From positions 1 to 35,587 of the forward strand of contig JACQSU010000086.1 in the NCBI GenBank assembly GCA_016211165.1: a stretch of DNA of 35,587 bases, given 5' to 3'. Position numbers and translations under genes: made by a program. Below the pieces are notes generated by a model. It did no database searches. It saw only the letters and a program-made list of their open reading frames with translations, and was not told the DNA's origin. Shown one piece after another: positions 1,869 to 17,230 of the stretch; position 1 is the stretch's first letter, and every line of letters begins with the position of its first letter. The stretch is from Candidatus Woesearchaeota archaeon (GTDB lineage Archaea > Nanobdellota > Nanobdellia > Woesearchaeales > JAGWAF01).

Positions 1869-2471
1869 ATGCACATCGACATTATCATTCCAGATCGCAA
1901 CGAACATGAACTCATCGAGATGGCCAAGCGACTTGACTGGGATGCATTGTGTCTTGTCTATGAGAAACGAGCAGATGCCGACCACATCAAGGGCTTGAAA
2001 TCCCCACTTCCGCTGATCTTTGCAAGCCATATAGAAAAGAACGCTTCGTTGCGTCTCATGCGTGGCACAGGAGAAGATCGAACATCACTTGAACGAGGAG
2101 GATTTGATCTTTACTACGGCATGGAAGAAACTGCGCGACACGATCGTCTCCACCACCGCGAAGGCGGGCTCAATCACGTGCTATGCAAGCTGATGCACAA
2201 ACACGGCATTGTCTACGGCATTAACTTTGACAGCGTCCTTAACGCTGAAGCAACCAAGCGCGCAATCCTCATAGGCAGGATGCGACAGAACTTCAAACTC
2301 TGCGCTGATGCTGACGTGCCCATCGTCGTTGCTTCCTTTGCCACAACACCATACCAGATGCGAACACCCCACGATTTGCGGGCAACGATGCTCTCATTCG
2401 GGATGAATACTGCGCAGGCCAAGGAGTCGATACTTCATCTGGGAATCAGACTCGCCAACCACCTTAAATAG
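1869..2471 (+). CDS. rnp3: RNase P protein subunit Rpp30 (component 3)
   Basis: A 200-residue protein of the Rpp30/RNase P component 3 family, a TIM-barrel-like subunit of archaeal RNase P that supports 5' maturation of pre-tRNA. Family marks are the FDLYYGMEE strand-helix, GGLNHVLCKLMHKHG, the YGINFDSVL strand and the ending SFGMNTAQAKESI with a short basic tail. Length is normal (about 200-240). It sits beside two tRNA-modification genes, giving a small tRNA-maturation neighbourhood. The start codon is about 25 bp downstream of a TATA-like box, so it may have its own leaderless transcript. Confidence 0.92.
   Translation: MHIDIIIPDRNEHELIEMAKRLDWDALCLVYEKRADADHIKGLKSPLPLIFASHIEKNASLRLMRGTGEDRTSLERGGFDLYYGMEETARHDRLHHREGGLNHVLCKLMHKHGIVYGINFDSVLNAEATKRAILIGRMRQNFKLCADADVPIVVASFATTPYQMRTPHDLRATMLSFGMNTAQAKESILHLGIRLANHLK
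2463..2470 (+). promoter_or_regulatory. TATA box for the hxsD-hxsB cassette
   Basis: cttaaata overlaps the last codons of the Rpp30 gene and is centred about 26 bp before the ATG at 2493. This suggests the hxs cassette is transcribed separately as a leaderless mRNA, and it supports ATG 2493 over the TTG at 2490. Confidence 0.5.
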
Positions 2472-2492
2472 TTTGAAGACACTTCCCACTTG

Positions 2493-2813
2493 ATGGAGAT
2501 TGTTACATTTGAAATCGACACGCGGACATACCCACTCTTTATCATACGCGCCGCAGCGTATGCATTTCTTGATCAAACAACAACCATTCTGTCTATTGCA
2601 TCCGAGAACAACATACGATGCCAACTCATCAGAAAAGAGGGCAGGCCCCCTTTTGAACCCCCAAAAGAGGGGGACACCCCATTTTTAAGCCCTGATATAC
2701 TCAAACAGGCATTCATTGATGAACTCACAACGCAGGCCCACTACTTCTCGCAACTTGAACACACCAAGCACATCACCGGCCCGCTCATCTTGGCAGCCTT
2801 GGGAGGACGATAA
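2493..2813 (+). CDS. hxsD: HxsD-like protein of a radical SAM peptide system
   Basis: A 106-residue protein resembling HxsD, the small partner protein of His-Xaa-Ser (Hxs) radical SAM systems. The N-terminus VTFEIDTRTYPLFIIRAAAY matches the family's beta-strand, then [DN]TxxYP, then helix pattern. The C-terminal half (PDILKQAFIDEL...LILAALGG) matches the helical ending of HxsD, which typically closes with a Leu-Ile-Leu-Ala motif. Family matching is from memory. HxsD is thought to assist the maturase, perhaps like a peptide-recognition element; its exact role is not established. The gene is followed, with a TAATG overlap, by a 63-residue gene and then hxsB. Residues 47-65 are Pro/Gly/Glu-rich and are encoded by a tandem-hairpin DNA insert. 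ATG 2493 is preferred to TTG 2490 because of the TATA spacing. Confidence 0.78.
   Translation: MEIVTFEIDTRTYPLFIIRAAAYAFLDQTTTILSIASENNIRCQLIRKEGRPPFEPPKEGDTPFLSPDILKQAFIDELTTQAHYFSQLEHTKHITGPLILAALGGR
2633..2685 (+). repeat. Tandem hairpins inside hxsD
   Basis: Two hairpins lie head to tail. The first pairs AAAAGAGGG (2633-2641) with CCCCCTTTT (2646-2654), with one mismatch. The second pairs AAAAGAGGGG (2663-2672) with CCCCATTTTT (2677-2686). The middle CCCCCTTTT could instead pair with the downstream AAAAGAGGGGG, so the folds are mutually exclusive. The arms resemble the AAAAGGG/CCCTTTT hairpins at 36-59 and 35302-35325. The encoded residues form a Pro/Gly-rich linker between two conserved parts of HxsD, as expected if a small palindromic element was inserted in frame. 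Confidence 0.6.
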
Positions 2814-3004
2814 TGCTCCAAACAGATCCTCTGCGGCTCGAACTGGATCATCGCATCTATCCACAACACAAGATCGCTCCTGTGCTCAATGACCTTGGCC
2901 TGCGACCAACAGAACAAACAGACACAGCAACAGTCATCGAATCAGACATCTCCAAACTCCTCCATATCGTCGACCATCTCACTATCCAAAACCGCTCACC
3001 ATGA
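2813..3004 (+). CDS. 63-residue protein, weak second HxsD-like protein
   Basis: A small gene held between hxsD and hxsB by overlaps at both ends: TAATG with hxsD and ATGA with hxsB. This is strong support that it is translated. Its N-terminus LELDHRIYPQHKI parallels the HxsD start FEIDTRTYPLFII, sharing E, D, R, Y, P and I at the same spacing. It could be a shortened HxsD paralogue or a two-part recognition element. The second half (SDISKLLHIVDHL) looks helical. It has no Cys and no His-X-Ser repeat, so it is not an obvious modified substrate, but that is not excluded. The function is unknown. Confidence 0.65.
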   Translation: MLQTDPLRLELDHRIYPQHKIAPVLNDLGLRPTEQTDTATVIESDISKLLHIVDHLTIQNRSP

Positions 3005-4443
3005 TCCTCCCATACCAGACCCGAACCATCACAGGAAAAAACCTTGTGACAACACGACTTGGAACATGGATCATCCTCACAAACGAAGAACTTTCTCAAC
3101 TGTGCACAAATACCTTAGAAGACCCTCTCCGAGAACGCCTCACATTAACCGACATCATCATCACGGAAGAGAACCGAGATCGCGTCCTATCCAATTTCCG
3201 CAGACTCAATGCAAATCTTGGAGCAGCACCAAGCCTGCACATCATCTGCGTCACAGACCGTTGCAACCACAACTGCACCTACTGTCACGCATCAAGCCCA
3301 GAAGCAACAGGAGTTGATATGAGTATTGCGACAGCGAACAAAGTTCTTGATGTGATATTCTCCAGCCCTGCCAAGCACTTGACTATCGAATTCCAAGGAG
3401 GCGAGACGATGATCAATTGGATGGTTGTAACCCACATCGTCACTCAAGCAAGACGCAGGGAAGCAACAAGCGGCAAACACATCAGTCTTGTCATCGTAAG
3501 CAATCTCTCACTCATCGACAACGCCAAACTCGAATTCTTATCAATACATCAAGTGGCAATCACGACAAGCCTTGATGGCCCTGCATCTGTGCACGATGCC
3601 AACAGACCATTCCTTGGCGGTGGCCGCAGCACGCACAAGAGTGTCATGCGCGGGATTGAACTTATACAAAACCACTATAAGAAGCAAGGAAAACCAGCAC
3701 CTCTTAGCGCATTGTGCACAACGACCCGGGCGTCACTCGCGCACGGCCCTGCGATTGTCGATGAGTATGCACGCTTAGGGTTTGAGATCATCCACCTACG
3801 CCCTGTCAATCCAGTTGGCATCGCCAAAAAACGATGGGATCTTGTAGGCTACACTGCCGATGAGTTTATTGCGTTTTGGAAGACTGCGATGGACCACATC
3901 CTTAAGCTGAATCGATCCGGCATACGCATCATCGAGCGGCAGGCCTTTATGATGCTGCAAAAAATACTTGCATTCCGCGATCCGATGTACCTAGGCCTGA
4001 TGAACCCCAGCGGAGCAGGACGCTGTGTTCTCACGTATAACTATGATGGCAAGGTCTACGCAAGCGATGAGGCGCGGATGATTGGAGAAGACATCTTCTG
4101 CCTTGGCAGTGTCGATCTCGGATACGAGAAACTTGCGCGCGATCCGATCGTGGCTGGGCTTGTGCAGGCGTCCATCTTGGACAATACCTGTGGCTCGTGT
4201 CCATATATTCCCTGGTGCGGCATTGACCCTGTGCTCACCTATGCCGCATACGGCAGCATCATCCCACAGATCCCCCTGCATCGGATGCACCAGATCCACC
4301 AGGCGCAGTTTGACTATCTTATTGAGCAGATACTTACACACCCGGACCCATTTTCGGCATTCTATTTGTGGCTGCCAAACTTGGACATGACCCTCACAAG
4401 GGCCCGACTCGGAGATCGCATCCTTGCGCTGGATATGCGGTAA
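3001..4443 (+). CDS. hxsB: HxsB-family radical SAM/SPASM peptide maturase
   Basis: A 480-residue radical SAM enzyme that closely fits HxsB, a maturase of His-Xaa-Ser peptide systems. An N-terminal segment of about 80 residues resembles the family's leader-binding region (TWIILTNEEL). The SAM cluster motif is C88-NHN-C92-TY-C95, followed by EFQGGE (the GGE motif that binds SAM), VIVSNLSLI, SLDGPASVHDANRP and LRPVNPVG. The C-terminal half carries GAGRCVLTYNYDGKVYASDE and a SPASM-like auxiliary-cluster motif C397-x2-C400-x5-C406. Such enzymes use SAM to make a radical that crosslinks or otherwise modifies residues of a ribosomal peptide. The product of HxsB is not known to me. The classical HxsC partner is absent from the window, and the 97-residue peptide on the other strand is the nearest substrate candidate. 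The start overlaps the previous stop. Confidence 0.9.
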   Translation: MILPYQTRTITGKNLVTTRLGTWIILTNEELSQLCTNTLEDPLRERLTLTDIIITEENRDRVLSNFRRLNANLGAAPSLHIICVTDRCNHNCTYCHASSPEATGVDMSIATANKVLDVIFSSPAKHLTIEFQGGETMINWMVVTHIVTQARRREATSGKHISLVIVSNLSLIDNAKLEFLSIHQVAITTSLDGPASVHDANRPFLGGGRSTHKSVMRGIELIQNHYKKQGKPAPLSALCTTTRASLAHGPAIVDEYARLGFEIIHLRPVNPVGIAKKRWDLVGYTADEFIAFWKTAMDHILKLNRSGIRIIERQAFMMLQKILAFRDPMYLGLMNPSGAGRCVLTYNYDGKVYASDEARMIGEDIFCLGSVDLGYEKLARDPIVAGLVQASILDNTCGSCPYIPWCGIDPVLTYAAYGSIIPQIPLHRMHQIHQAQFDYLIEQILTHPDPFSAFYLWLPNLDMTLTRARLGDRILALDMR

Positions 4444-4458
4444 ACCCCACCGCTACCC

Positions 4459-4467
4459 AGATATAGA
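4459..4467 (+). promoter_or_regulatory. TATA box for the prepilin peptidase gene
   Basis: agatataga is centred about 25 bp before the ATG at 4488. This supports that start rather than the in-frame GTG at 4482. Confidence 0.45.
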
Positions 4468-4487
4468 CGCGTACGATCCCAGTGTCC

Positions 4488-5423
4488 ATGGAACTAGCAT
4501 GGATCATGAGTGTCATCGCATGGGTCACCATCGCGACGCTTGCCGCATACAAGGACCATCGAACATCTCGAATTCCCAATACTCTTAACGCAACAGCCTT
4601 GGCAGTCAGTCTGATGATTCTTGCCGTGATCAAGTCATCGACGCAAACCATCCTTATCAACACAACAGCAACGATAGGCGCCTCACTTGTGCTGTGGAAC
4701 CAGGGATGGTGGCGCGGGGGAGACGCCAAACTCTTCATCGCACTGGGCATCGCCACACCCGCACTCATCACGCACGCAATCTACCCAACTTATCCATCCT
4801 TGAATCTCCTTGCACCAACCCTCATCCTTCCTGCTATCTTGATGAGCATCAACGCCGTGCGCAAAAGCACATGGGCACACCACACAAGCAGCCTTCATGG
4901 CACTATTATGAAGCTCCCACGCTACATCCCCACCCTATTTAGTGCAAGTTGGCTCCTTAGCATCGGCTCGGAACTGATTGGCATCCCTCTCACCTCGCTT
5001 GCAACAATCACTATCACATTCGCCGCACTCGAACTCACACTGCCTAACATACCCTGGCCAATTATCCTCTCGCTTTCCTTGCTAAGACTTCTTATTGACT
5101 CCGCATACCAAAGCACCTCGTTCTTTCTTGCATCCATGCTCATTGTTACTATCTATATCACCGCCACATACCTTGGATTACTTGCCGCTGACTTGCATAG
5201 CAGACATATTCTCGCAGTACGCCTACAACCTGGCATGCGCATCACAGCAGCAACTCTTCCCTCTCACCTGCGTCAGTATAGCGATACTGTCGACATCACA
5301 TCCGATAACATCGGCAGCATTCAATCACATGTGAAAGACCTTCGTATCCTAGACCAATTCACCCTTGGACCATACTTCCTTCTTAGTCAATTTATCATAC
5401 TCATAGCCGAAATAGTTTTATAG
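4488..5423 (+). CDS. A24-family prepilin peptidase
   Basis: A 311-residue membrane aspartic protease of the type IV prepilin/preflagellin peptidase family (A24). It cuts the short positively charged leader from pilin-like preproteins on the cytoplasmic face of the membrane. The two catalytic Asp are seen as YKDHRTSRIPN (D23) and RGGDAKLF (D79). The first Gly of the usual GxGD motif is Arg here. Many hydrophobic segments follow. At 311 residues it is longer than PibD/FlaK (about 230-250), with an added C-terminal soluble stretch (about 240-290) and a final membrane segment, closer to the longer archaeal EppA-like form. Substrates are plentiful in this window: the RSQIS, RAQVS, SGQLE, KAQIQ, RAQME and KGQEL leaders further along. 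Confidence 0.88.
   Translation: MELAWIMSVIAWVTIATLAAYKDHRTSRIPNTLNATALAVSLMILAVIKSSTQTILINTTATIGASLVLWNQGWWRGGDAKLFIALGIATPALITHAIYPTYPSLNLLAPTLILPAILMSINAVRKSTWAHHTSSLHGTIMKLPRYIPTLFSASWLLSIGSELIGIPLTSLATITITFAALELTLPNIPWPIILSLSLLRLLIDSAYQSTSFFLASMLIVTIYITATYLGLLAADLHSRHILAVRLQPGMRITAATLPSHLRQYSDTVDITSDNIGSIQSHVKDLRILDQFTLGPYFLLSQFIILIAEIVL
5416..5423 (+). promoter_or_regulatory. TATA box for the speH gene
   Basis: ttttatag overlaps the stop of the peptidase gene and is centred 25-26 bp before the ATG at 5445, the leaderless spacing seen throughout the window. Confidence 0.5.
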
Positions 5424-5444
5424 ACAGACCAAGAGCAAATCTTT

Positions 5445-5825
5445 ATGATTGGAACGCATCACCTGCTTGACCTGTACAGCGTTGATTCCCACAGCCTTAC
5501 GGATCTTGAGCTCATACGCGATGCCTTGCGTGGAGCCTGTGCCGCAGGTCACTTCACAACGCTTTCCGAACACATTCACACATTCCCAGAGGGGGGAATA
5601 ACAGCCATCCTCTTGCTTGCGGAATCCCACATCAGCATCCACACGTACCCAGAACACCGATATGCAGCAATCGACTTGTTTAGCTGCGGAGCACAGGCGC
5701 GCCCAGAAGCTGCCATCCAACACCTCATCACCGCCCTTGCACCAGCGCATCATACTCGCAGTGTGAGCACGCGAGGAGAAGGGATCTGCGCGCGGCCGTT
5801 GCCGGCTCATATCTACAACTCTTGA
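5445..5825 (+). CDS. speH: S-adenosylmethionine decarboxylase proenzyme
   Basis: A 126-residue class 1b AdoMet decarboxylase. It cleaves itself between Glu60 and Ser61 (in AESHISIHTYPE), turning Ser61 into the pyruvoyl cofactor. It then makes decarboxylated SAM, the aminopropyl donor for polyamine synthesis. His66 and Cys81 (FSCG) sit at the same offsets from the pyruvoyl serine as in the characterised Thermotoga enzyme (S63, H68, C83), so it should be active. Length is normal. It ends 2 bp from the stop of the convergent operon, which begins with a BpsA-like aminopropyltransferase, the enzyme type that consumes its product. The last 18 residues are divergent. Confidence 0.93.
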   Translation: MIGTHHLLDLYSVDSHSLTDLELIRDALRGACAAGHFTTLSEHIHTFPEGGITAILLLAESHISIHTYPEHRYAAIDLFSCGAQARPEAAIQHLITALAPAHHTRSVSTRGEGICARPLPAHIYNS

Positions 5826-5827
5826 TA

Positions 5828-6121
5828 TCACTTACCAGCAACAGGAGGGGGCGGGCACGGACCGCCCTGAATAATTTGGTGGCAATGAATCCCACAATGG
5901 TTACCGTCACCTGTCTCAATACTCAAACTATTCGCGTGGCACGCAGAATTACACGCAGGTGAGCACGAACACTGTGCTAATGTGGGAATCGCTGATGAGG
6001 CAAGACCAAGCGCAATCAGCGCACCAGCCTTCACAACATCGGCCTTGGTCATCCGCCCATTTTCATCTTCAATAAAGAGCGAGACCTTGCGAGCAACTTT
6101 TGGCAAAAGTTTCTCATTCAT
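5828..6121 (-). CDS. Small Cys/His-rich peptide, candidate RiPP precursor
   Basis: A 97-residue protein with the layout of a modified-peptide precursor. It has a charged leader (1-28: MNEKLLPKVARKVSLFIEDE and onward), a hydrophobic Ala-rich helix (about 29-49, ending SSAIPTLAQ), then a short core of about 48 residues with 8 Cys and 4 His. The core includes CSCSPACNSACHANS, LSIETGDGNHCGIHCHQ and a Pro-rich tail. The charged start, hydrophobic helix and H-N-S-L-S...TG...H.x.H pattern resemble what I recall of His-Xaa-Ser-type substrates, with Cys where Ser would be. That comparison is from memory and is inference. It is the last gene of a four-gene operon, and its ATG overlaps the preceding gene by 8 bp. 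An upstream in-frame start is rejected because it would lie deeper inside that gene. It could also be a small secreted metal-binding protein. Confidence 0.7.
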   Translation of the reverse strand: MNEKLLPKVARKVSLFIEDENGRMTKADVVKAGALIALGLASSAIPTLAQCSCSPACNSACHANSLSIETGDGNHCGIHCHQIIQGGPCPPPPVAGK

Positions 6122-6794
6122 ACACACGCGCCTCCTCGGCAATCGAACGGCATATGGCACTCTTGATCAGAGGGCACGCTTGCGGATTCTTGGTCACTGT
6201 CACTGTACAGGCCATCATATCAGTCACATCTGAGATATAAGCACACAAGGATTCCTCATTAGCACGCAGAGCTTGCACCCAGTGCACGTGACCCTTGCAA
6301 ACCTCTTGATCAGAAAGTTGTGGGTAGCGGCTGCACAGGGACGAATCATCCATGATGATGGCTTGACATTCAATAGCCTCCTCACCATAAGGACACAATG
6401 ATGTTTGATTCCGCTCTACAGCGTTGCATACGGCAGCGTATTCTGGATCAATGATATCCTCACAAGAACCAGTCCCATCGATCATTCGAACCATAACAGA
6501 GAGTGCCTTGCAATCTTCCGCAGACGGATGCGCATCACACGCAGAAGAATTCGCGCTAGCCAAGGCTACACACAATGCATCAAGATTGCTCTTCTCCACG
6601 CACTGAGCAGTTCGTTGTTCTATCACCTCGGTTACCGGAACCTTAGAAGACCATACTGAAATGCCGACGACAATAACAAATCCAACGACGATGAACACCC
6701 AGTGTCTCATAGGCCAAAATCCGCAGACGCGGACACCTCGGATTTCTTTCTTGTTTTTGTCACGCCGCCCGCTCTCGTGAACGGTTCTTGACAT
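6114..6794 (-). CDS. Single-pass membrane protein with Cys-pair repeats
   Basis: A 226-residue protein with a basic cytoplasmic N-terminus (about 1-35), one membrane helix near 37-54 (WVFIVVGFVIVVGISVW) and an outside region with evenly spaced Cys pairs, such as LCVALASANSSACDA, SLCPYGEEAIEC and SLCSRYPQLSDQEVC. The unit is roughly C-x(6-10)-C repeated about six times with helical spacers, probably a disulfide-bonded helical repeat. I do not recognise a named family. The 271-residue protein at 12762 has the same design. Start chosen at 6794: it has a strong ribosome binding site (AGGAGGG, 6798-6804). An upstream in-frame start would run back into the previous gene. It precedes the candidate precursor peptide with an 8-bp overlap, so a role in anchoring, export or receipt of that peptide is possible. 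Confidence 0.75.
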   Translation of the reverse strand: MSRTVHESGRRDKNKKEIRGVRVCGFWPMRHWVFIVVGFVIVVGISVWSSKVPVTEVIEQRTAQCVEKSNLDALCVALASANSSACDAHPSAEDCKALSVMVRMIDGTGSCEDIIDPEYAAVCNAVERNQTSLCPYGEEAIECQAIIMDDSSLCSRYPQLSDQEVCKGHVHWVQALRANEESLCAYISDVTDMMACTVTVTKNPQACPLIKSAICRSIAEEARVYE

Positions 6795-6797
6795 ATT

Positions 6798-6804
6798 CCC
6801 TCCT
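6798..6804 (-). promoter_or_regulatory. Strong ribosome binding site deciding a start
   Basis: On the - strand AGGAGGG is followed by AAT and then the ATG at 6794-6792. It fixes the start of the Cys-pair membrane protein, 13 bp after the previous stop. Such clear sites are rare in this window, where most genes appear leaderless or overlap-coupled. Confidence 0.75.
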
Positions 6805-6807
6805 GTC

Positions 6808-7917
6808 TTAGGGTATAAAACCGTTTCGACAATCGACGACGTGCACAATCTTGCCAGATGTCGTGCGATGAACCAGTCCACCCATAACAATGCTCACATC
6901 AACACCATGCACTGTCGCGATCCTTTCTCGCAACTGCGCAACCTGCGCAGGCGTGGCATGCGCAACGCACACCACAACCTCATCGTGCACACCATCGGCT
7001 GCATGTCTTAACTCCAAGGAGAATTCAGGATGACCTATCGCGCTCTCGACTAGCGCCGCAAGCGAATCCTTGGAGCAGACATCTCCCCAAATCTTGATCT
7101 GATCATCTGAACGTCCCAGTATCTTGATCAACCGCACAGAACCCTCTGATCGCAACTCGACCCGATCACCAATCAAATACCTCACTATGGGCATCGACTC
7201 ATTCATCAGATCCGTGATGAGCAGGTCCCCCACACCCTCTTTGCTAATCCTGCCGTTGTCATCCCTCACTTCAAGGACGAGGGAACCTCCAAGGACATGA
7301 AACCACCCGTCATCAGCCTGCGATGCGACGATGCCGACCTCGGTCGCAGCATAAAACATCCGAACCCTGGCCGTCGGCACCTTGGAAGAAAAGAACTGCA
7401 TACATTCCCTTGTCACTTTTCCGCCTGTGAGCATAATGAGACGCAATGAGGGCAGGGCATCCACATGCTTAAGAATCTCAAACACGTGCGAGACAAATCC
7501 CACAAGCACTGACACGCCAGCAGACTCAAGCTTAAAACACAGCAGATCCATATTATGCTCTGTAAGCACACCGCAATGAATGATCATCGCAGGAAGCAAA
7601 CGATCAAAACCCACATCAAGAATCACGTTATCCAGAAGACTCCCCACAACATCATCTGCCTTGATTTCCTCCAAGAAGAGTCTGGATCCCTGCGCAATCT
7701 GACTCTCCACAGCTTTGCTTGATAGAAAAATCAACTTATGAGCCCCCTCTGATCCCGACGTGTTGAGCACATAACGCGGACGGACAGGACAGTCAGTAAT
7801 TGACCACGATGCGAGGTGCTCCCTTGTCACAATAGGTATGTCCCCGGATCCATGCCAGGATCTATACTTCGGATGCGCACGCCATTTGCAGGAGATATCC
7901 ACAACATCGGCCATCAT
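6808..7917 (-). CDS. PaaK-like adenylate-forming enzyme
   Basis: A 369-residue member of the ANL (acyl-CoA synthetase/adenylate-forming) superfamily, closest in layout to phenylacetate-CoA ligase/CapK/LuxE-type enzymes. Motifs in order: phosphate-binding loop NTSGSEG (52-58), LTGGK (163-167), YAATEVG (189-195, the adenine-binding A5 motif), YLIGDRV (247-253, with the ribose-binding Asp), GRSDDQIKIWG (268-278, hinge) and RTTSGKI near the C-terminus with the catalytic Lys. It should activate a carboxylate as an acyl-adenylate, then pass it to CoA, an amine or a protein. It is shorter than typical PaaK (about 430) at the N-terminus. It shares a 4-bp ATGA overlap with the BpsA-like gene upstream, so the two are made together. 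The substrate is unknown; a peptide or amino-acid carboxylate would fit the locus. Confidence 0.82.
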   Translation of the reverse strand: MMADVVDISCKWRAHPKYRSWHGSGDIPIVTREHLASWSITDCPVRPRYVLNTSGSEGAHKLIFLSSKAVESQIAQGSRLFLEEIKADDVVGSLLDNVILDVGFDRLLPAMIIHCGVLTEHNMDLLCFKLESAGVSVLVGFVSHVFEILKHVDALPSLRLIMLTGGKVTRECMQFFSSKVPTARVRMFYAATEVGIVASQADDGWFHVLGGSLVLEVRDDNGRISKEGVGDLLITDLMNESMPIVRYLIGDRVELRSEGSVRLIKILGRSDDQIKIWGDVCSKDSLAALVESAIGHPEFSLELRHAADGVHDEVVVCVAHATPAQVAQLRERIATVHGVDVSIVMGGLVHRTTSGKIVHVVDCRNGFIP

Positions 7918-9641
7918 AGACCACCCAAGCGCCTCCTTCGCACATATCTTATCTCGCGAATGAAATCGCGATCCGCCGTGAACCGTAGCGGCTCATCAGC
8001 ATTGTAGATAGCGTCCTCAACCTTCCCTGTTACAAGAGGATGCGCGAACTCCGTCGACAAGAGATGCAAGACCAACTCCTTACGACCAAGCGCTGCCAAA
8101 AGCCATTGATCATTCTGACCGACCGTTATATAGTCCTTGGCAGCAGCTTCTAACGAAGACAAGTCTGGATACTTCTCACGCAAAGCCTTTGGCACATCAT
8201 TCCGACTCGTAACACCCTTTTCCTTGAGCACAAGCCCCATTGCAAATGCCGATTCAATCGCCTCCCCTTCTATTATCCAGGCAGGGTTGCGCGGGGTAAA
8301 CGCGCAAAACACGTGCTTGCCAGGACGTTGACCAATCGCTTCTACAGAACGTGAGAGAAAGAGACGGAATCCTGCACCGGTATAGGGAGGATCAAAACAG
8401 CACACATCCACCATACCTATAAGATCCTGCGGCAAGGGATCGCGCAAGTCATGCACACGCGCACGCACGGGGAGACGATGTGTCGCTGCGACTTCATTGA
8501 TACGAGACACCACACGTGGATCAATATCAAGCACGACAATGTCATCAAACACTCCCTGCGCCGCGAGCAGCAGCGAGAGAAAATCATCATCACCAAGAAC
8601 CAACACCTTTCGCTGCCCCCGAGCGGCCTTTGCAATGTACGCGGCCCTTACCTTTAGATCCTCTTCACACACCCGAAGCTGCGCAAAAGAGCGATCCTCA
8701 ACACAACGCATGTCTGACACATCGATACGCACGGCCTGCGGAGTCCAGTGATGCATGGCATAGAACCTGCCTGCGTCCTCATGGACTATACGATGTTCCA
8801 TAAACATCCGCAACACCCGCGCGACAAGTAAAATTGCCATACCAACATCCTGCGCAATAGACCACACATCCTTGCCATCACAACAATCAAAAATATCAAG
8901 CACATCCTCTGCGCACAATTCCACGGCGCAATGATTCGTCAATTGTCCGGCAACATGCTCGGCTACATCCTTAAGCAGATTCACTGGCCGAAGCTCTTCA
9001 TCACGGATTGAAGCAATTGCTCCCTTGCACACATCCTTCTTTGCGCAGACATGGCATCGGGGCCGTTGTGACCGAGCCTGTGCAACAAGCAATCCAGCAT
9101 CGTGCTGCTCAAGATCCCCGAGCAGACATAACGGAATATTATCTGCAAGAATAACACCTGGAAACAGCGCCATCACAAGCCGCGTCTGCGCAGCAGCAGC
9201 ATCCACAGGAATATACTCATGTTCTGCTACCGGGACCACCTGTGACTGCGCACCTGGATAGAACAAGATGATCCTCTCAATCCCCTGGTTCCTTGCCTTG
9301 CGAACCATCGAATTGAGACGATACACACTTGATGCTACCAAGGGAATGATCAGCACATCAGCAGGGGATATATGCGCCGCTTCCTCTGTTAGCACAGTAT
9401 CAACTAAGACACCCACTGTCACATTCGTTGAGCGCGACACCTTTGAAGGATGCGATGTAATCACGAACGTCTTCTTATCCCTGCTGCAGATAAGCTCCTG
9501 GATGGTATCCCATTGCGGATGATCTGTTGGCTCGGCACCAGCGATGAGCACCAAACCTTGCATACCGGAGATCCCATCCCTAATCTGATCAAGCCCCACA
9601 AACACATCACCATCACGCAACCTACAGAACACAGCCTCCAT
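7914..9641 (-). CDS. Degenerate radical-SAM domain fused to BpsA-like enzyme
   Basis: A 575-residue fusion. Residues 1-215 look like a radical SAM barrel that has lost the Fe-S site. AGAEPTDHP (34-42) aligns with the usual GGEPTxHP, FVITSHP (59-65) with the VTNG strand and NIPLCLLG (168-175) with the end of the barrel. There is a SPASM-like C196-x2-C199-x5-C205-KG motif, but no CxxxCxxC at the N-terminus. Residues about 235-575 match BpsA (DUF43), the branched-chain polyamine synthase: a winged-helix part (240-300), then LGDDDF (349-354), the acidic strand VLDIDP (370-375) and FDPPYTGAG (417-424). BpsA transfers aminopropyl groups from decarboxylated SAM to an amine, classically spermidine. 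It is the first gene of its operon, with a leaderless-type promoter. The acceptor may be a polyamine or a peptide. Confidence 0.8.
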   Translation of the reverse strand: MEAVFCRLRDGDVFVGLDQIRDGISGMQGLVLIAGAEPTDHPQWDTIQELICSRDKKTFVITSHPSKVSRSTNVTVGVLVDTVLTEEAAHISPADVLIIPLVASSVYRLNSMVRKARNQGIERIILFYPGAQSQVVPVAEHEYIPVDAAAAQTRLVMALFPGVILADNIPLCLLGDLEQHDAGLLVAQARSQRPRCHVCAKKDVCKGAIASIRDEELRPVNLLKDVAEHVAGQLTNHCAVELCAEDVLDIFDCCDGKDVWSIAQDVGMAILLVARVLRMFMEHRIVHEDAGRFYAMHHWTPQAVRIDVSDMRCVEDRSFAQLRVCEEDLKVRAAYIAKAARGQRKVLVLGDDDFLSLLLAAQGVFDDIVVLDIDPRVVSRINEVAATHRLPVRARVHDLRDPLPQDLIGMVDVCCFDPPYTGAGFRLFLSRSVEAIGQRPGKHVFCAFTPRNPAWIIEGEAIESAFAMGLVLKEKGVTSRNDVPKALREKYPDLSSLEAAAKDYITVGQNDQWLLAALGRKELVLHLLSTEFAHPLVTGKVEDAIYNADEPLRFTADRDFIREIRYVRRRRLGGL

Positions 9642-9790: not shown

Positions 9791-12760
9791 ATGCAACAAT
9801 CCATTGCTGTGATCACAATTATCCTGGTGCTCATCCTTGTTGCGTCCCCAACATTTGCACAAAGCGGCGTTCTCAAACTCCTCTTTCCTGACCAAACCAC
9901 GGAAGCCATCGTCACAGACGAATGCGCAGGCACAGGCAAATGCTGCATCCCCACAGCCATCGCAGACAAGGTCTGCACAAGCGAAGGCACGTACATCCTC
10001 AACTTCAAATACACAGGAGACGTACAGAGCGCAGGCGAAGTCCTCAAAAACGCCCACGCCGTCAACTGGGATACGGAGCAATACTGCAAAGGCACGGAGA
10101 GCACGGATGTGCTATGCTTCCAAAACAAAAGCGTAAACTTCTCATCTGTATCAGGGAAGTGCTGCGGAGCACGCCCCAGCAGGGACTGCGGACTGCGCAG
10201 CGGCACAGAAGTCTGCGTCAACCCCACCAAAGAACCAGAACACTGGGAACTCATGCACCTTGCAGAAAACCACGGAGATATCATCGATGTCGACTGCGCG
10301 CAAACACAACTCGTAAGCGATGGAACTGAATTCTACGGATGTGGACTCTACCAAGGCATCGCGACACAGCATCCCACGTTCGATCTTTTGGAAGTCACCA
10401 GAAGTGGCGTTGACCAATACCAAAAGCACGGCTACCTGTGCGCAGAACCAGACCCTGGAAACAACAACACCCACCCGGAAATCATCGAATGCCTCGGCGA
10501 CGGACGATCATACAACCAAAAACAAGGAAACATCGGACAGATCGGAGAAGCACACCAACGCGGCGAACTCTTCTTTGCCCAACTTGGCCGCGACGATGTC
10601 ATCCAAACCGGAGCCCTTGGCAACTTTAATGGCGCAAGCGGCAAACTCATTGTTAAACTCAACAACACCTGGGCAGGGTCAGAAGACCTTACCAGAGTCA
10701 TCTTCTTTGCAGAAGCGGACCTTGACACATACATCTCCATAGAAAAAAGCAAGAACAAACTCACCTGCAATGCAGTCAATGGGGGAAGCAGTATCAAAAC
10801 AACATTTGACATTAGCAGTCTTACACCATCACCGCAAAGCGGCATTATCCACACGATTATCCTCACGTGGAACACCAATGGCCAATTCATCTGCTCCTTT
10901 GATGGAGTATCACAAACCAAAACAGGATACAACGCCATCAATGTCAGAGAACTCTTTGTCAACACAGGACCCCGAGGAGCCCAAGGATCGCAATCACCCA
11001 TGCGCGCGCGCATCTCAAAAGACGCGAATGCGCCCATACTCTACTGCACCAAGGATGCCCAATGGGTCAAGGACCTTGACACAAAGGACTCGATTACGTG
11101 CCGCGCTGCAGGCCTTCGCTGGACAGGAAGCAAGTGCTGCTCTGAAGACGAAGACCTGCCAGGCGAATCCTACAATGACAAAGACCCCCCAAACTACAAT
11201 GACCAAGAAAGCGGCGCCTGCTTTAAATCCGCGCATGTCGCCAATGGATTCCTCGTCCCACAAACCAATGACACGGTCCTTGCGATCCTCGGAGAATTCT
11301 ACGGATGTCAACTCAACGAGACCGCACCACACTTTCTTGCACTCACTGACACCCACACAGGAAAACCCCTTATCAATACCACCAATAGGTGCACACTCGC
11401 CTATAATGCAACACGAAATGTCAACGTGAACTACTACTGCTCATTCCGCAACAACTGGACACGCACGCTTAAACAGGATCAGTTGTTCCCACGAAGCGTC
11501 GCACCTGAAGTTCGCTCCGTCCTGAATCCCGCACAAAACCGCAGCGCCATCGACACAGAATGCTGCCCACAACAACAATGCTGGAGCGGCATTGCCTGCG
11601 TGAACGACCAACGAAACGACCCAAATCCTCGAAACACCATCAAAGGATTCCGCTGCATCGGAGGCAACTGGACCACGATGACACCAAAACACACCTTTGA
11701 TGACCGTGTCTTCGGATTCTGCCCACGCAACGAACAATGCCTTGTCAACCCAAGCGCAAACGCATCTGCAAACGACCTACCACACGCCATTAGCTTTGCA
11801 CATCCGGAACGAGGACCCATCTGCATCACTAATGGGCAATACATCCTTCAATCAATCACTCGTGGCGATGCCACGCAGAGCACATCAACATACTGCAACA
11901 ATGGGTCATGGACCAGCAGAACCAATATCCTCGCATCATACCTTGCAAGCATCGGAGAAACCCAAGCACCCAACAACTACGCACTCTTCTGCGACCGATT
12001 CCGCAACACACTCAATTTCTTTGAATACCGAGCACTCCCGGACGCCAACTTTGTGTCGCACTACATGGACGCAACATGCACAGGGCCTGACAAAACACCA
12101 ACCCCCTGCGTCAACGAATTCTGCGTCCTCAAATACGGAGACAAGGTCGCCTGGGGAACCACACTTAACAAACCCATCAACGACTCAAGAGAGGGATTTC
12201 TTAATGCCGTTGGAAAACCAGTCACGCACTGTGACAACGCACTGCAAGACGACGCACAATTCCACGCCTGCGGCGCAAACATGTGGCACAACAATGCCCT
12301 GGGAGCCATCATCCACCTTCCCACAGGAGCAGTGCCAGGCATCACAACTACCGAAGCCCTAACCGCCGGCGCAGCATACATCGAGGCGCGCATGCAAGCC
12401 ATTGACACATTCATGGAATCCGCAACACTTGCAGACTTTCGAACCTTCATCCTAAGCACCCACATGTTCGAAAACCTCTATATCAACCGCGCAGGCCAAA
12501 AAGACCTTTTTGCGTTTTTGCAAACAAACAGAGTCAATGGCACACCCATCGACTACCTTGCCGCACGCTACATGGGAATCAATATCACCGACCCACGCGG
12601 CGTGTCGGGCTGCGACCTTATCAGAAACCGCATCACCGTCGATTTAGCCAAAGACTGCAAAACTGTGGGCACAACAAACACCTTTGTCGGCGTACAAACA
12701 CCAGGAGAAGGAAACCTAAGAATTATATGGCAGGACTTCACAGCAAAACTACGCAAATAA
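9791..12760 (+). CDS. Large Cys-rich secreted protein with ConA-like domain
   Basis: A 989-residue exported protein. A Sec signal peptide at 1-23 (IAVITIILVLILVASPTFA) is followed by a Cys-rich region with many CC and CxxC pairs (TGKCCIP, GKCCGARPS, SKCCSED, TECCPQQQCW). Residues about 256-410 look like a concanavalin/LamG-type beta-sandwich (GKLIVKLNNTWAGSEDLTRV, then IILTWN and FICSFDG). Many NxT/NxS sequons point to an external, glycosylated protein. The C-terminal half holds CVNEFCVLKYGDKVAWG. The protein at 17989 is a full-length paralogue with the same order of motifs. There is no C-terminal membrane anchor. It starts a run of surface genes and is preceded by a hairpin and an SD site. 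Probably an extracellular structural or adhesive protein held by disulfides; no enzyme motif is seen. Confidence 0.78.
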   Translation: MQQSIAVITIILVLILVASPTFAQSGVLKLLFPDQTTEAIVTDECAGTGKCCIPTAIADKVCTSEGTYILNFKYTGDVQSAGEVLKNAHAVNWDTEQYCKGTESTDVLCFQNKSVNFSSVSGKCCGARPSRDCGLRSGTEVCVNPTKEPEHWELMHLAENHGDIIDVDCAQTQLVSDGTEFYGCGLYQGIATQHPTFDLLEVTRSGVDQYQKHGYLCAEPDPGNNNTHPEIIECLGDGRSYNQKQGNIGQIGEAHQRGELFFAQLGRDDVIQTGALGNFNGASGKLIVKLNNTWAGSEDLTRVIFFAEADLDTYISIEKSKNKLTCNAVNGGSSIKTTFDISSLTPSPQSGIIHTIILTWNTNGQFICSFDGVSQTKTGYNAINVRELFVNTGPRGAQGSQSPMRARISKDANAPILYCTKDAQWVKDLDTKDSITCRAAGLRWTGSKCCSEDEDLPGESYNDKDPPNYNDQESGACFKSAHVANGFLVPQTNDTVLAILGEFYGCQLNETAPHFLALTDTHTGKPLINTTNRCTLAYNATRNVNVNYYCSFRNNWTRTLKQDQLFPRSVAPEVRSVLNPAQNRSAIDTECCPQQQCWSGIACVNDQRNDPNPRNTIKGFRCIGGNWTTMTPKHTFDDRVFGFCPRNEQCLVNPSANASANDLPHAISFAHPERGPICITNGQYILQSITRGDATQSTSTYCNNGSWTSRTNILASYLASIGETQAPNNYALFCDRFRNTLNFFEYRALPDANFVSHYMDATCTGPDKTPTPCVNEFCVLKYGDKVAWGTTLNKPINDSREGFLNAVGKPVTHCDNALQDDAQFHACGANMWHNNALGAIIHLPTGAVPGITTTEALTAGAAYIEARMQAIDTFMESATLADFRTFILSTHMFENLYINRAGQKDLFAFLQTNRVNGTPIDYLAARYMGINITDPRGVSGCDLIRNRITVDLAKDCKTVGTTNTFVGVQTPGEGNLRIIWQDFTAKLRK

Positions 12761-12761
12761 C

Positions 12762-13577
12762 ATGACACAACCACAACCAGCAAGGAAACCATCAGTCGAT
12801 GAGTACATCACCAATCTCAAAACCGGAGGATGGACCAATTCTGATGCGTTACGAAAAGCAATCAGCGAAGGATACGGTAATGAAATTATTACCACCATAC
12901 GCAACGATCATGCGCACATAGTCACGCGCAACATCCTCATTGGCCTATGCATGCTCTTCGCTGCAATTCTCATAGGACTCACATTTACAAGACCAGGAAC
13001 CCCTGCCTATGACCTCACCTACCAAGCCACCCAAACACTCAACCTTGCGCCATGCCTTGCCTTGCAAGACCCAGGAGAGAGAACCCACTGCATCGAATCG
13101 GTAAGCGCAGCAGCCCAACGGATCCTATCACACTCGCAAAGCGATTTACACGCACGAACCCTTGCAAGCACAGTCCTTGCAGCAACAACAGAACCCAACC
13201 GATGCGAGACACTAGAAGCAACACTTCGAACCACATGCACAGACCAGTCATCATATTGGCGCGCCATCATCAGCGGCGACACATCATCATGCTCGAGCCT
13301 TAGTGATACACCTGCGCGCACGGCGTGCGTCATCGAAACACTCCAACGACACGATCCAGCACAAGCAGCACAACTCGCCGCATCATACGAAGAAGCGCTC
13401 ACCACTGCGCTCCAAGGCCGCAACCCCTCCTTATGCAACCAACTAGGCCAGAAGGATCTTGTGACGCAATGCACGATCGCAGCATCCTTTCAGCTCGCCA
13501 CGACAACACAGGACCCCATCCACTGCCAATCGATCTCCGATGATACCATTCGAGCACAGTGCACAATGCTCACTTGA
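12762..13577 (+). CDS. Membrane-anchored Cys-pair repeat protein
   Basis: A 271-residue protein starting 1 bp after the previous stop. A cytoplasmic part of about 45 residues (with VDEYITNLKTGGWTNSDALR, like the N-terminal helices of some archaeal membrane proteins) leads to a membrane helix at about 52-69 (ILIGLCMLFAAILIGLTF). The outer part is built from helical units with paired Cys: APCLALQDPGERTHC, NRCETLEATLRTTC, SSCSSLSDTPARTAC, SLCNQLGQKDLVTQC and IHCQSISDDTIRAQC. This is the same design as the 226-residue protein at 6114-6794. The family is not known to me. The spacing suggests disulfide-linked helical hairpins outside the cell, perhaps supporting the large Cys-rich neighbour. Confidence 0.75.
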   Translation: MTQPQPARKPSVDEYITNLKTGGWTNSDALRKAISEGYGNEIITTIRNDHAHIVTRNILIGLCMLFAAILIGLTFTRPGTPAYDLTYQATQTLNLAPCLALQDPGERTHCIESVSAAAQRILSHSQSDLHARTLASTVLAATTEPNRCETLEATLRTTCTDQSSYWRAIISGDTSSCSSLSDTPARTACVIETLQRHDPAQAAQLAASYEEALTTALQGRNPSLCNQLGQKDLVTQCTIAASFQLATTTQDPIHCQSISDDTIRAQCTMLT

Positions 13578-13593
13578 TAGCGCCACGCTACAC

Positions 13594-13604
13594 TTTTATA
13601 TATC
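13594..13604 (+). promoter_or_regulatory. TATA box for the beta-helix gene
   Basis: ttttatatatc is centred about 27 bp before the ATG at 13626, so the transcript should be leaderless. Confidence 0.55.
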
Positions 13605-13625
13605 ATCTGCACCATAATCGACCTG

Positions 13626-15806
13626 ATGAAGACACCCCTGCTTTTCCGAATTCTGGTCGTCTTGTGCTTTCTTGCAGCCGTCTTCAACTCCCCTGGTTCT
13701 GCTACACCCAGCTCCGGATGCCAAATCCTTCATCGCAACCTCATACTCACCCACAACCTCACATCCAATGGCACCTGTTTTACCATCGGAGCAAACGGAG
13801 TGACGCTTGATTGCGCAGGGTTTACGATTCGCGGCAATGCAAGTGATGTGCTCATTAATATCTCGCGCAAACATGGTGTTATCGTCAAGAATTGCCGCTT
13901 TGCTAATGCGAGCATCAGTGTTCTTATGGAGGATGTGAATAACAGCCTTATCAATAACGTGACTCATGACACCATCCGATATCTTGGAACCATCACCCCG
14001 GACTGGAATAGAATCTCACGCAACACCACTATCGCCAACAGTGATAACTTCATCCTCTACAAACCGAACAATGGCGATGCCAGCAGTCTTGTCCTTGAGA
14101 ACAACACCAATATGGGATTCCAACGGGCGACGTTTAGCTCTTTTAATAACAACACGATCATTAGAGCGGAGTCCCTACACGGAAACCTCGGAACCTCATC
14201 TCGTTTTACCAACAACCACATCAGCGGAATCCACACCACGTTTAGCAACTCCATGACATTTATCAACAACACCTTCACCAACACATCCTTGACAGGCATT
14301 GGACTCACTGGAGCGAGCGCAGACATCATTTTCATCAACAATGACGTACGAAATGTTCCCCGATTCTGGCACATCGGCGGGGGCGGATTCGCAGCCAATC
14401 ATCGCATTATTGGCAACACATTCTATAATATCAGTCTTGCATTAGCCTACCCTGGCTACGGACCTGCGACAAACACCATCATCGTCAATAACAAATTCCT
14501 TAGCATCGGCACCGCCATCATCCTCAACAATGCCAGGCACAATGTCCACCTCCTCAATAATACCTTCAACGCCACCTACAGTGCGATTAACCTTGGCACC
14601 ACTGCCCCTAATCACAACGCAGTCATTGCGAATAACACATTCAATACAACAGAATATGGAATACAATTCTTTGGTACGAGCAATAATACCCACATCCTGG
14701 GAAATACATGGCTTGCAGGAAGCACCGGCATTCTTTTGAGCAGCACAACACAAGGAGCAAGCGCCAACAACACCCTTATCAGAGGAAATACGTTTAGGAC
14801 AACCACTACCCCTATTAGCCTCACCACGCTTGGAGCCAGCGGACAAAGCGCAGCAGTCCTTCGCATCATCGACACTCTGATGCTAAGCACGGGAAGCGGC
14901 ATATCACTCACTGGAGCAGAAAGCCCTTACATCAACAACAATACAGCGAACGCAACAACTTCAACCACACCGACCATTGCGCTCTTCAACGCGACACAAG
15001 GCATAGTCTCCAATAACACCATTAACAACGCGAGGCATAGCGTCAGGCTCATCACTTCGCGGGCGACCCTCCAAGACAACCTACTGGTGGACACACCCCT
15101 TGGAGTTGTTATTAACGACACCGGCTGGCCAGCAGGAGAATACACCATTGACAACACCACATTCCTCACACCCCCACGAGAATCCATCCACATCAGCGAC
15201 ACACTCAATGTCACCATCACCGGCCCCCTGCCTGCAAATATCACCATCCAAAACAGCACCACAACACGCATCACCTTAACCAGCCCCCTCCACGCGCACA
15301 CACGCCACCTCTCTGATATTATCAGCCTCACCAACAATCTCGCGTATCTAAACAGCACACTTGCACCTGAATGGAACACCAGCGCACGCATCTCCCTGCA
15401 CAACCTTAACTTCCTTGACCCACAACCCTACATACGCTTCCTTGACTATGGATCATTCCACAACTGCCCCCCAATGATATGCACCACACTCACGCGGGAC
15501 CCTCTCACAAATACATACCACCTTGACGTCAACCACTTTACCACCTACACCATAGGCGAAGGACAACTCCCCCAACCCATCCCTGCATCGGCACTTCCCG
15601 CGCCATCAGAAAACATCTGTTGCTGCAATTCCCAAGGACTCGCACAGAAGCCAAGCGTACTCTTCTCCGGAGCAGCATTTCCACTTGGATGTGACACTGC
15701 AGCGGAATTTGTAGAACATCCCCCACCAATCGCTAGCCTTGATATCGATTTCTCCACTGCATGCACCACCGTATGCATGGAAGACGCAATCCAACAATAC
15801 ATATAA
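13626..15806 (+). CDS. Secreted NosD-like beta-helix protein with ICCCN tail
   Basis: A 726-residue exported protein. The signal peptide (1-26) is followed by a long run (about 35-490) of parallel beta-helix repeats rich in NNTF, NNTI and SNNT turns, as in NosD/PbH1-type right-handed beta-helix proteins. It opens with the familiar NGTCFTIGANGVTLDCAG motif. Such proteins bind or modify polysaccharide or act as passive surface scaffolds; no catalytic residues can be assigned. Residues about 490-640 look like beta-sandwich. The last ~60 residues form a Cys module (ENICCCNSQGLAQKPSVLFS and onward) that recurs at the N-terminus of the 1949-residue protein at 22349. It has its own TATA box. Confidence 0.8.
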   Translation: MKTPLLFRILVVLCFLAAVFNSPGSATPSSGCQILHRNLILTHNLTSNGTCFTIGANGVTLDCAGFTIRGNASDVLINISRKHGVIVKNCRFANASISVLMEDVNNSLINNVTHDTIRYLGTITPDWNRISRNTTIANSDNFILYKPNNGDASSLVLENNTNMGFQRATFSSFNNNTIIRAESLHGNLGTSSRFTNNHISGIHTTFSNSMTFINNTFTNTSLTGIGLTGASADIIFINNDVRNVPRFWHIGGGGFAANHRIIGNTFYNISLALAYPGYGPATNTIIVNNKFLSIGTAIILNNARHNVHLLNNTFNATYSAINLGTTAPNHNAVIANNTFNTTEYGIQFFGTSNNTHILGNTWLAGSTGILLSSTTQGASANNTLIRGNTFRTTTTPISLTTLGASGQSAAVLRIIDTLMLSTGSGISLTGAESPYINNNTANATTSTTPTIALFNATQGIVSNNTINNARHSVRLITSRATLQDNLLVDTPLGVVINDTGWPAGEYTIDNTTFLTPPRESIHISDTLNVTITGPLPANITIQNSTTTRITLTSPLHAHTRHLSDIISLTNNLAYLNSTLAPEWNTSARISLHNLNFLDPQPYIRFLDYGSFHNCPPMICTTLTRDPLTNTYHLDVNHFTTYTIGEGQLPQPIPASALPAPSENICCCNSQGLAQKPSVLFSGAAFPLGCDTAAEFVEHPPPIASLDIDFSTACTTVCMEDAIQQYI

Positions 15807-15807
15807 A
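15799..15807 (+). promoter_or_regulatory. TATA box for the first pilin-like ~450-residue gene
   Basis: acatataaa overlaps the preceding stop and lies about 30 bp before the ATG at 15833. This supports that start over the in-frame ATG at 15761, which is inside the previous gene. Confidence 0.5.
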
Positions 15808-15832
15808 CCCGAATCTAGCAGTTCACACCCCA

Positions 15833-17188: not shown

Positions 17189-17200
17189 TCAACAACAACA

Positions 17201-17209
17201 TATATAAAT
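17201..17209 (+). promoter_or_regulatory. TATA box for the second surface block
   Basis: tatataaat is centred 26 bp before the GTG at 17231, which supports both a leaderless transcript and the GTG start. Confidence 0.6.
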
Positions 17210-17230
17210 GATCCAGACGGTATAATTGAC

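What the first reader, a model, noticed from the sequence alone, without database searches (positions are those of the whole stretch)
2463..9641. Possible undescribed archaeal peptide-modification locus
An HxsD-HxsB cassette, an A24 peptidase and an active-looking SAM decarboxylase face, tail to tail across 2 bp, an operon with a degenerate radical-SAM/BpsA fusion, a PaaK-like adenylating enzyme, a Cys-repeat membrane protein and a 97-residue Cys/His-rich leader-core peptide. Hxs systems are known mainly from bacteria (from memory). A maturase, carboxylate activation, an aminopropyl donor and an aminopropyltransferase side by side suggest a peptide that is radical-modified and perhaps aminopropylated. 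The parts are visible; the joint pathway is inference. Several genes have their own TATA boxes, so co-expression is not proven.
Basis: partly seen in the sequence, partly recalled or inferred. Interest (0 to 1): 0.78.

Follow-up and report, generated by a model that had tools for sequence, protein, structure and literature searches.

The report
Archaeal Hxs peptide-modification locus with peptidase
A tiny-genome archaeon carries a His-Xaa-Ser (Hxs) peptide-modifying gene set, with a small secreted-type peptide and its own pilin-type peptidase; the same set recurs in about a fifth of related archaeal genomes, but the polyamine genes beside it are probably unrelated to it.

Summary
The locus is real. 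It is best read as an archaeal (Woesearchaeales-type, DPANN) Hxs radical-SAM peptide system, a known kind, in an unusual variant. HxsB passes NCBI's equivalog cutoff. The 97-aa peptide is its cognate HxsA3-type precursor: a model built only from relatives picks it out of 283 window ORFs at E 5e-13, it is the only such peptide in the held genome, and relatives encode their version directly after HxsB. Across 61 HxsB loci of the order, the HxsD-like genes recur in 58, an A24 (prepilin-type) peptidase in 47, and a precursor in 40. The peptidase, not noted before in anything I could read, looks like a core part. The window's variant lacks the His-Xaa-Ser repeats, the HxsD tail motif and all three Aux-I cysteines of HxsB. 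PaaK recurs in two relatives; the fusion gene in none. SAM decarboxylase and BpsA form a separate two-gene unit in a same-family genome and in another, so aminopropylation of the peptide is poorly supported. Modification chemistry, peptidase cleavage and function remain inference. The radical-SAM half of the fusion was not confirmed. New variant of a known kind.

The parts
2490..2813 (+). HxsD-like protein (107 aa, start TTG, or ATG at 2493); lacks the C-terminal DPxGIAxPWE tail of most relatives
   Evidence: TIGR03976 weak (15.1 bits); leave-window-out model of 50 relatives E 3.6e-13; tail motif absent; fold of a relative predicted at pLDDT 89
2813..3004 (+). second, short HxsD-like ORF (63 aa)
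   Evidence: same position as the short HxsD-like ORF of relatives (tandem pair; HxsD-like family in 58 of 61 loci); own score weak (E 0.36), so assignment rests mainly on position
3001..4443 (+). HxsB radical SAM/SPASM maturase; SAM-cluster Cys 88/92/95 kept, Aux-I Cys 337/355/409 replaced by S/S/D, Aux-II Cys 397/400/406 kept, 430 is H
   Evidence: TIGR03978 403 bits, cutoff 370; alignments of 48 and 117 HxsB
4482..5423 (+). A24 (prepilin-type) membrane peptidase of the Hxs-linked kind; likely processes the precursor
   Evidence: PF01478; leave-window-out model of relatives E 2.1e-31; D25 and D81 conserved; recurs in 47 of 61 HxsB loci; the genome has a second A24 on another contig
5445..5825 (+). 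AdoMet decarboxylase homologue; probably polyamine metabolism, not the peptide pathway
   Evidence: TIGR03330 113 bits; in G102 and G182 the homologue sits directly before a BpsA gene, away from Hxs
5828..6121 (-). HxsA3-type precursor peptide, 97 aa: leader 1-33, hydrophobic stretch about 29-45, Cys/His core without HxS repeats
   Evidence: NF038309 weak, E 8e-4; leave-window-out models E 5e-13 and 1.5e-14 among 283 ORFs; only such peptide in the held genome; ribosome site and start
6114..6794 (-). Cys-repeat single-helix membrane protein overlapping the peptide gene; possible partner
   Evidence: 8-bp overlap with the peptide gene; similar protein follows the peptide in the same-family genome (pairwise BLASTP E 1e-4); Cys-repeat proteins border the precursor in six more loci, but the model score for this one is weak (E 0.074)
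6808..7917 (-). PaaK-like adenylate-forming enzyme with SGS..K, GD, GRxDDxIK and SGK motifs
   Evidence: PF00501; nearest solved relatives PaaK-like ligases; orthologues beside HxsB in L031 and L032 only
7914..9641 (-). N-terminal domain of unproved nature fused to a BpsA-like aminopropyltransferase domain (GDDD and DPPYT present)
   Evidence: PF01861 90 bits at residues 315-439; solved BpsA relatives; not found in any other genome as a fusion

Best explanation
It is an archaeal Hxs (HxsA3-type) peptide-maturation system with a dedicated A24 peptidase. Shown here by sequence: the 97-aa peptide is a family member with the conserved leader, HxsB and HxsD are its neighbours, and the A24 peptidase is a recurrent member of the set. 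Inferred: the two HxsD-like proteins hold the leader (invariant Glu20 and near-invariant Gly22). HxsB uses its SAM cluster to make a radical modification in the His/Cys-rich core (window: CHANSLSIETGDGNHCGIHCHQ). The A24 peptidase, as for type IV pilins, cuts after Gly33 directly before the hydrophobic stretch, or otherwise handles the membrane-inserted precursor, leaving the modified core displayed outside the cell. In this lineage and in its sister loci the long His-Xaa-Ser repeats are gone, so the product here is a short Cys/His peptide. PaaK and the Cys-repeat membrane protein may be accessory. AdoMet decarboxylase and the BpsA domain most likely serve polyamine metabolism.
For: HxsB equivalog hit. 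HxsB in 57 of 288 genomes of the order, with the HxsD-like family in 58, A24 in 47 and precursor in 40 of 61 loci. Precursor leader recognised without using the window, unique in the genome. In a same-family genome all stand in one line: TtcA, RNase P p30, A24, HxsD, HxsD2, HxsB, precursor, Cys protein (L041), with the same TtcA-p30 flank as in the window. Precursor and A24 co-occur (38 of 40 loci with precursor, 8 of 20 without; Fisher p 6e-6; truncated contigs and kinship not corrected). Gly33 in 39 of 41 A24-bearing archaeal precursors against 11 of 31 others (p 4e-8; mostly an archaea/bacteria contrast). Genomes hold about 1.7 A24 genes, so adjacency by chance is rare. Aux-I ligand assignment follows anSME numbering in PMC5491770.
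Against: No experiment. The window's precursor and HxsD score below NCBI cutoffs, HxsC is absent from the held 88%-complete genome, and HxS repeats are absent. Lost Aux-I cysteines could mean decay, although bacterial HxsB repeatedly lack the same three. Leader residues do not fit a classical type IV pilin signal (no Glu at +5), and many leaders also end in AxA-like signal-peptidase sites, so A24 may have another role. Bacterial Hxs loci mostly lack A24.
Confidence: 0.75

Rival explanations
1. A joint pathway: HxsB modifies the peptide, PaaK activates a carboxylate, and the BpsA fusion transfers aminopropyl groups made by the AdoMet decarboxylase onto the peptide.
For: The fusion overlaps PaaK by 4 bp and the minus operon ends with the peptide; AdoMetDC follows the A24 gene by 21 bp. 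BpsA keeps GDDD and DPPYT, and GDDD is the motif that positions the dcSAM aminopropyl group (PMC12979288).
Against: No Hxs locus elsewhere has AdoMetDC or BpsA. The pair occurs without Hxs as a two-gene unit in G102 (same family) and G182. The genome also has a spermidine-synthase-like gene that could use dcSAM. AdoMetDC is common in the order, 110 of 288 genomes.
Confidence: 0.08
2. A decaying Hxs remnant: the cassette has lost repeats, HxsD tail, HxsC and Aux-I ligands and no longer modifies anything; the peptide survives as a secreted Cys/His metal-binding or structural peptide.
For: Stepwise loss of features and a long HxsB branch (0.79 vs median 0.43); the sister bacterial locus L112 has lost even more SPASM cysteines.
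Against: All ORFs are intact; the SAM-cluster motif and A24 catalytic residues are kept. Loss of the same three Aux-I cysteines with Aux-II kept occurs in bacterial HxsB that sit beside long-repeat precursors, e.g. L146, so it does not imply inactivity.
Confidence: 0.12
3. The A24 peptidase is a general pilin or archaellin peptidase that merely neighbours Hxs.
For: A24 enzymes process many pilins; the leader lacks a textbook pilin motif.
Against: It recurs beside HxsB in 47 of 61 loci in varying positions, most of these genomes, this one included, have a further A24 elsewhere, and it tracks the precursor.
Confidence: 0.15

Closest known systems
His-Xaa-Ser (Hxs) system, HxsA3/HxsA4 type (NCBIfam NF038309, NF038313, TIGR03976, TIGR03978)
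   Same: HxsB maturase, HxsD-like proteins, precursor with the HxsA3 leader beside them
   Different: No HxS repeats, no HxsC, no HxsD tail, an added A24 peptidase, and a convergent instead of co-directional precursor gene
SPASM radical-SAM maturases with solved structures (5wgg radical SAM domain protein; 4k36 anaerobic sulfatase-maturating enzyme)
   Same: Long profile match to HxsB and same SAM-cluster motif
   Different: The window's HxsB lacks all three conserved Aux-I cysteines
Archaeal and bacterial A24 prepilin/preflagellin peptidases (PF01478)
   Same: Family and two catalytic aspartates
   Different: Recurs with Hxs loci beside a second, general A24 elsewhere; the presumed substrate is a radical-SAM-modified peptide
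Polyamine pair AdoMetDC (SpeD) and BpsA
   Same: Both domains present; adjacent as a unit in relatives G102 and G182
   Different: Here split over the two strands, with the BpsA domain fused to an extra N-terminal domain

Membership tests
Hxs system | HxsB equivalog TIGR03978 | tested here: met
   403.1 bits against cutoff 370
Hxs system | HxsD (TIGR03976) | tested here: inconclusive
   15.1 bits, cutoff 50; but E 3.6e-13 to a model of relatives' HxsD
Hxs system | HxsC second radical SAM enzyme (TIGR03977) | tested here: not met
   best 28 bits against cutoff 267.9 in the held genome, 88% complete
Hxs system | Precursor with HxsA-type leader beside HxsB | tested here: met
   leave-window-out model E 5.2e-13; NF038309 19 bits, below its cutoff 65
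Hxs system | His-Xaa-Ser repeats in the precursor core | tested here: not met
   no repeat in the peptide and no other precursor in the genome
SPASM radical SAM enzyme | CX3CX2C SAM-cluster motif | tested here: met
   C88, C92, C95, invariant in 48
SPASM radical SAM enzyme | seven SPASM cysteines | tested here: not met
   only 397, 400, 406 kept; 337S, 355S, 409D, 430H
A24 peptidase | two catalytic aspartates in a membrane protein | tested here: met
   D25 and D81, 8 hydrophobic segments
A24 peptidase | class III signal in the proposed substrate | tested here: inconclusive
   Gly33 before the hydrophobic stretch in 39 of 41 A24-bearing archaeal loci, but no pilin-like +5 Glu
RiPP | post-translationally modified product | not testable with these tools
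   needs mass spectrometry
AdoMet decarboxylase | TIGR03330 and ESH processing site | tested here: met
   113 bits, AESHISIH; the substrate could still be arginine or ornithine as in some DPANN SpeD (PMC10407285)
BpsA | PF01861 with GDDD | tested here: met
   90 bits; only profile positions 16-141 of 243 matched

The most novel reading that the evidence does not exclude
Woesearchaeales and related DPANN archaea make a class of radical-SAM-modified peptides that are processed by a dedicated prepilin-type (A24) peptidase and held in or on the cell surface like pilins, a processing route I found described for no RiPP; the window shows a repeat-free form made by an HxsB without its Aux-I cluster and possibly acyl-decorated through PaaK. 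(Aminopropylation of the peptide is not excluded either, at about 0.07.)
Probability: 0.4. Interest if true: 0.75.

Novelty: new variant of a known kind. Interest (0 to 1): 0.6.

Why it matters
In the papers I could search, Hxs systems are named from sequence only, with no product or purpose shown. A conserved link between the precursor and a prepilin-type peptidase in archaea with very small genomes gives a concrete, testable idea of where the product goes (membrane or surface) and how it is released. The repeat-free, Aux-I-free variant offers a small substrate and enzyme on which to find out what HxsB does and whether Aux I is needed.

Tried and rejected
Aminopropylation pathway: rejected as leading explanation because AdoMetDC and BpsA pair up away from Hxs in relatives. 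Reading the Aux-I loss as unique to the window: rejected after 117 HxsB showed the same loss in several bacteria. HxsD as a winged-helix RRE: not supported; a confident model of a relative resembles, weakly, Pcc1/RNA-polymerase-L type alpha/beta proteins (best E 7e-3, TM about 0.5 by target). Cys-repeat protein as a firm member: not accepted, E 0.074 against the model of six neighbours. Fusion N-terminus as radical SAM: single-sequence fold pLDDT 41, profile scores at noise. First genome-contig scan with the single HxsB sequence found nothing; the alignment-based scan worked. The founding Hxs paper (10.1128/JB.00040-11) is not held; literature searches for Hxs in archaea or for prepilin peptidase with RiPPs found none.
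Full report
WHAT IS THERE. Two base pairs beyond, on the minus strand and running towards them, lie the fusion, PaaK, a Cys-repeat membrane protein and the 97-aa peptide, with overlaps of 4 and 8 bp and one gap of 13 bp, so the minus genes are probably one transcription unit. Only the 'degenerate radical SAM' label of the fusion's first 225 residues stays unproved.

WHERE IT COMES FROM. The window is a whole contig (C73) of a 976-kb, 88%-complete genome. Contigs of genomes in the same order have the same lengths as named Woesearchaeota records (for example 3,665, 11,339, 28,135 and 762,230 bases), so the order is very likely Woesearchaeales; this is inference from matching records.

THE PEPTIDE IS THE HXS PRECURSOR. 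HxsB occurs in 57 of 288 genomes of the order. I fetched 60 of these loci and searched their neighbourhoods. Directly downstream of HxsB, as a rule, lies a peptide with a conserved leader (PKLKKKISSFLTKEDGKISKExLLKxG, then a hydrophobic stretch) and a His-rich core, mostly ending in HxS repeats and Tyr or Trp. Models built without the window find the window's peptide at E 5.2e-13 (41 peptides) and 1.5e-14 (12 closest) among 283 ORFs, next best 0.28. Of 31 archaeal peptides 29 match NCBI's HxsA3 model and 17 HxsA4. The window's own score against HxsA3 is weak (19 bits, cutoff 65). It is the only such peptide in the held genome.

THE CASSETTE. In 61 loci the HxsD-like family is in 58 (usually as a tandem pair), A24 in 47 and a precursor in 40. 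In the same-family genome G102 the order is TtcA, RNase P p30, A24, HxsD, short HxsD, HxsB, precursor, Cys-repeat protein, all on one strand; the window has the same TtcA and p30 flank. The A24 gene tracks the precursor (38 of 40 versus 8 of 20 loci) and is not the genome's only A24. Bacterial Hxs loci share HxsD, HxsB and the leader but rarely have A24. Counts are not corrected for kinship or for truncated contigs.

HOW IT MAY WORK. Glu20 and Gly22 of the leader are conserved in archaea and bacteria alike, as expected of a recognition element. Gly33, immediately before the hydrophobic stretch, is Gly in 39 of 41 A24-bearing archaeal loci but in only 11 of 31 others, which have mostly Ala. Cleavage there by A24 is my inference; A24 enzymes are known to cut before a hydrophobic segment of pilin precursors. 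A typical archaeal HxsD is predicted with high confidence (pLDDT 89) and is not a winged helix; its weak best matches are Pcc1 and RNA polymerase L/K type subunits, dimerisation folds, so the two HxsD proteins may pair (speculative).

HOW THE WINDOW DIFFERS. Its precursor has no HxS repeats and no terminal aromatic residue. Its HxsD lacks the DPxGIAxPWE tail, which in archaea goes with repeats (14 of 15 loci with three or more repeats, 7 of 24 with fewer; p 1.6e-4). Its HxsB has lost C337, C355 and C409, the Aux-I ligands by the anSME assignment in PMC5491770, but keeps the SAM cluster and Aux-II C397, C400, C406. Among 117 HxsB the same triple loss recurs in several bacteria, with Aux II kept, some beside long-repeat precursors (L146), so it does not mean the enzyme is dead. 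In an HxsB tree the window groups with L031, L032 and an Omnitrophota locus L112 (support 0.99); these too lack long repeats.

THE OTHER GENES. PaaK has close relatives in only two other genomes, G091 and G133, both beside HxsB and the precursor, there with a gene matching the GNAT acyltransferase fold in one of the two. That is suggestive but may be one inherited event. AdoMetDC is common (110 of 288 genomes); BpsA with a strong match is rare (5 of 288). In G102 and G182 the two genes adjoin, without Hxs. So their closeness here is best explained as a polyamine pair whose genes came to lie on both sides; recruitment to the peptide is not excluded because each now sits tightly against a Hxs-linked gene. 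SpeD homologues of Woesearchaeota can be arginine decarboxylases (PMC10407285), so even the aminopropyl donor is not certain.

VERDICT. A real, archaeal variant of a known but functionally unsolved kind of peptide-modification system. The most useful new point is the conserved A24 peptidase; the most exciting part of the original claim, aminopropylation, is not supported.

Noticed in passing
HxsB alignment, window residues 337, 355, 409; L117, L131, L139, L146, L161, L163, L180: The three Aux-I cysteines of HxsB are lost together repeatedly in bacteria while Aux-II is kept, suggesting Aux I is dispensable for Hxs chemistry.
   Followed up: partly
HxsD C-termini, L031-L090: The DPxGIAxPWE tail of HxsD goes with long HxS repeats in the precursor (Fisher p 1.6e-4, uncorrected), hinting that the tail handles the repeats.
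   Followed up: partly
L049:1008-1577, L057:7774-9144, L162:4104-5741: Some Hxs precursors are N-terminal parts of larger proteins (190-545 aa), one with what looks by eye like an S74-type chaperone end, others with long Ser/Thr-rich and further C-terminal parts: Hxs cores as tags on larger proteins.
   Followed up: no
L112: An Omnitrophota bacterium has the HxsB closest to the window's in the tree beside an HxsA3-like precursor, with most SPASM cysteines gone: possible transfer between archaea and bacteria.
   Followed up: partly
window 9791-28198: Run of long Cys-rich secreted-type proteins with two apparently paralogous sets (9791-12760 like 17989-20949; 15761-17188 like 20949-22352); similar large exoproteins lie near Hxs in 18 loci.
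   Followed up: no
L031, L032, L041 downstream of Hxs: Extra radical SAM enzymes, a DegT-like aminotransferase, a glycosyltransferase-like gene and a PEP-utilising enzyme cluster beside archaeal Hxs genes.
   Followed up: no
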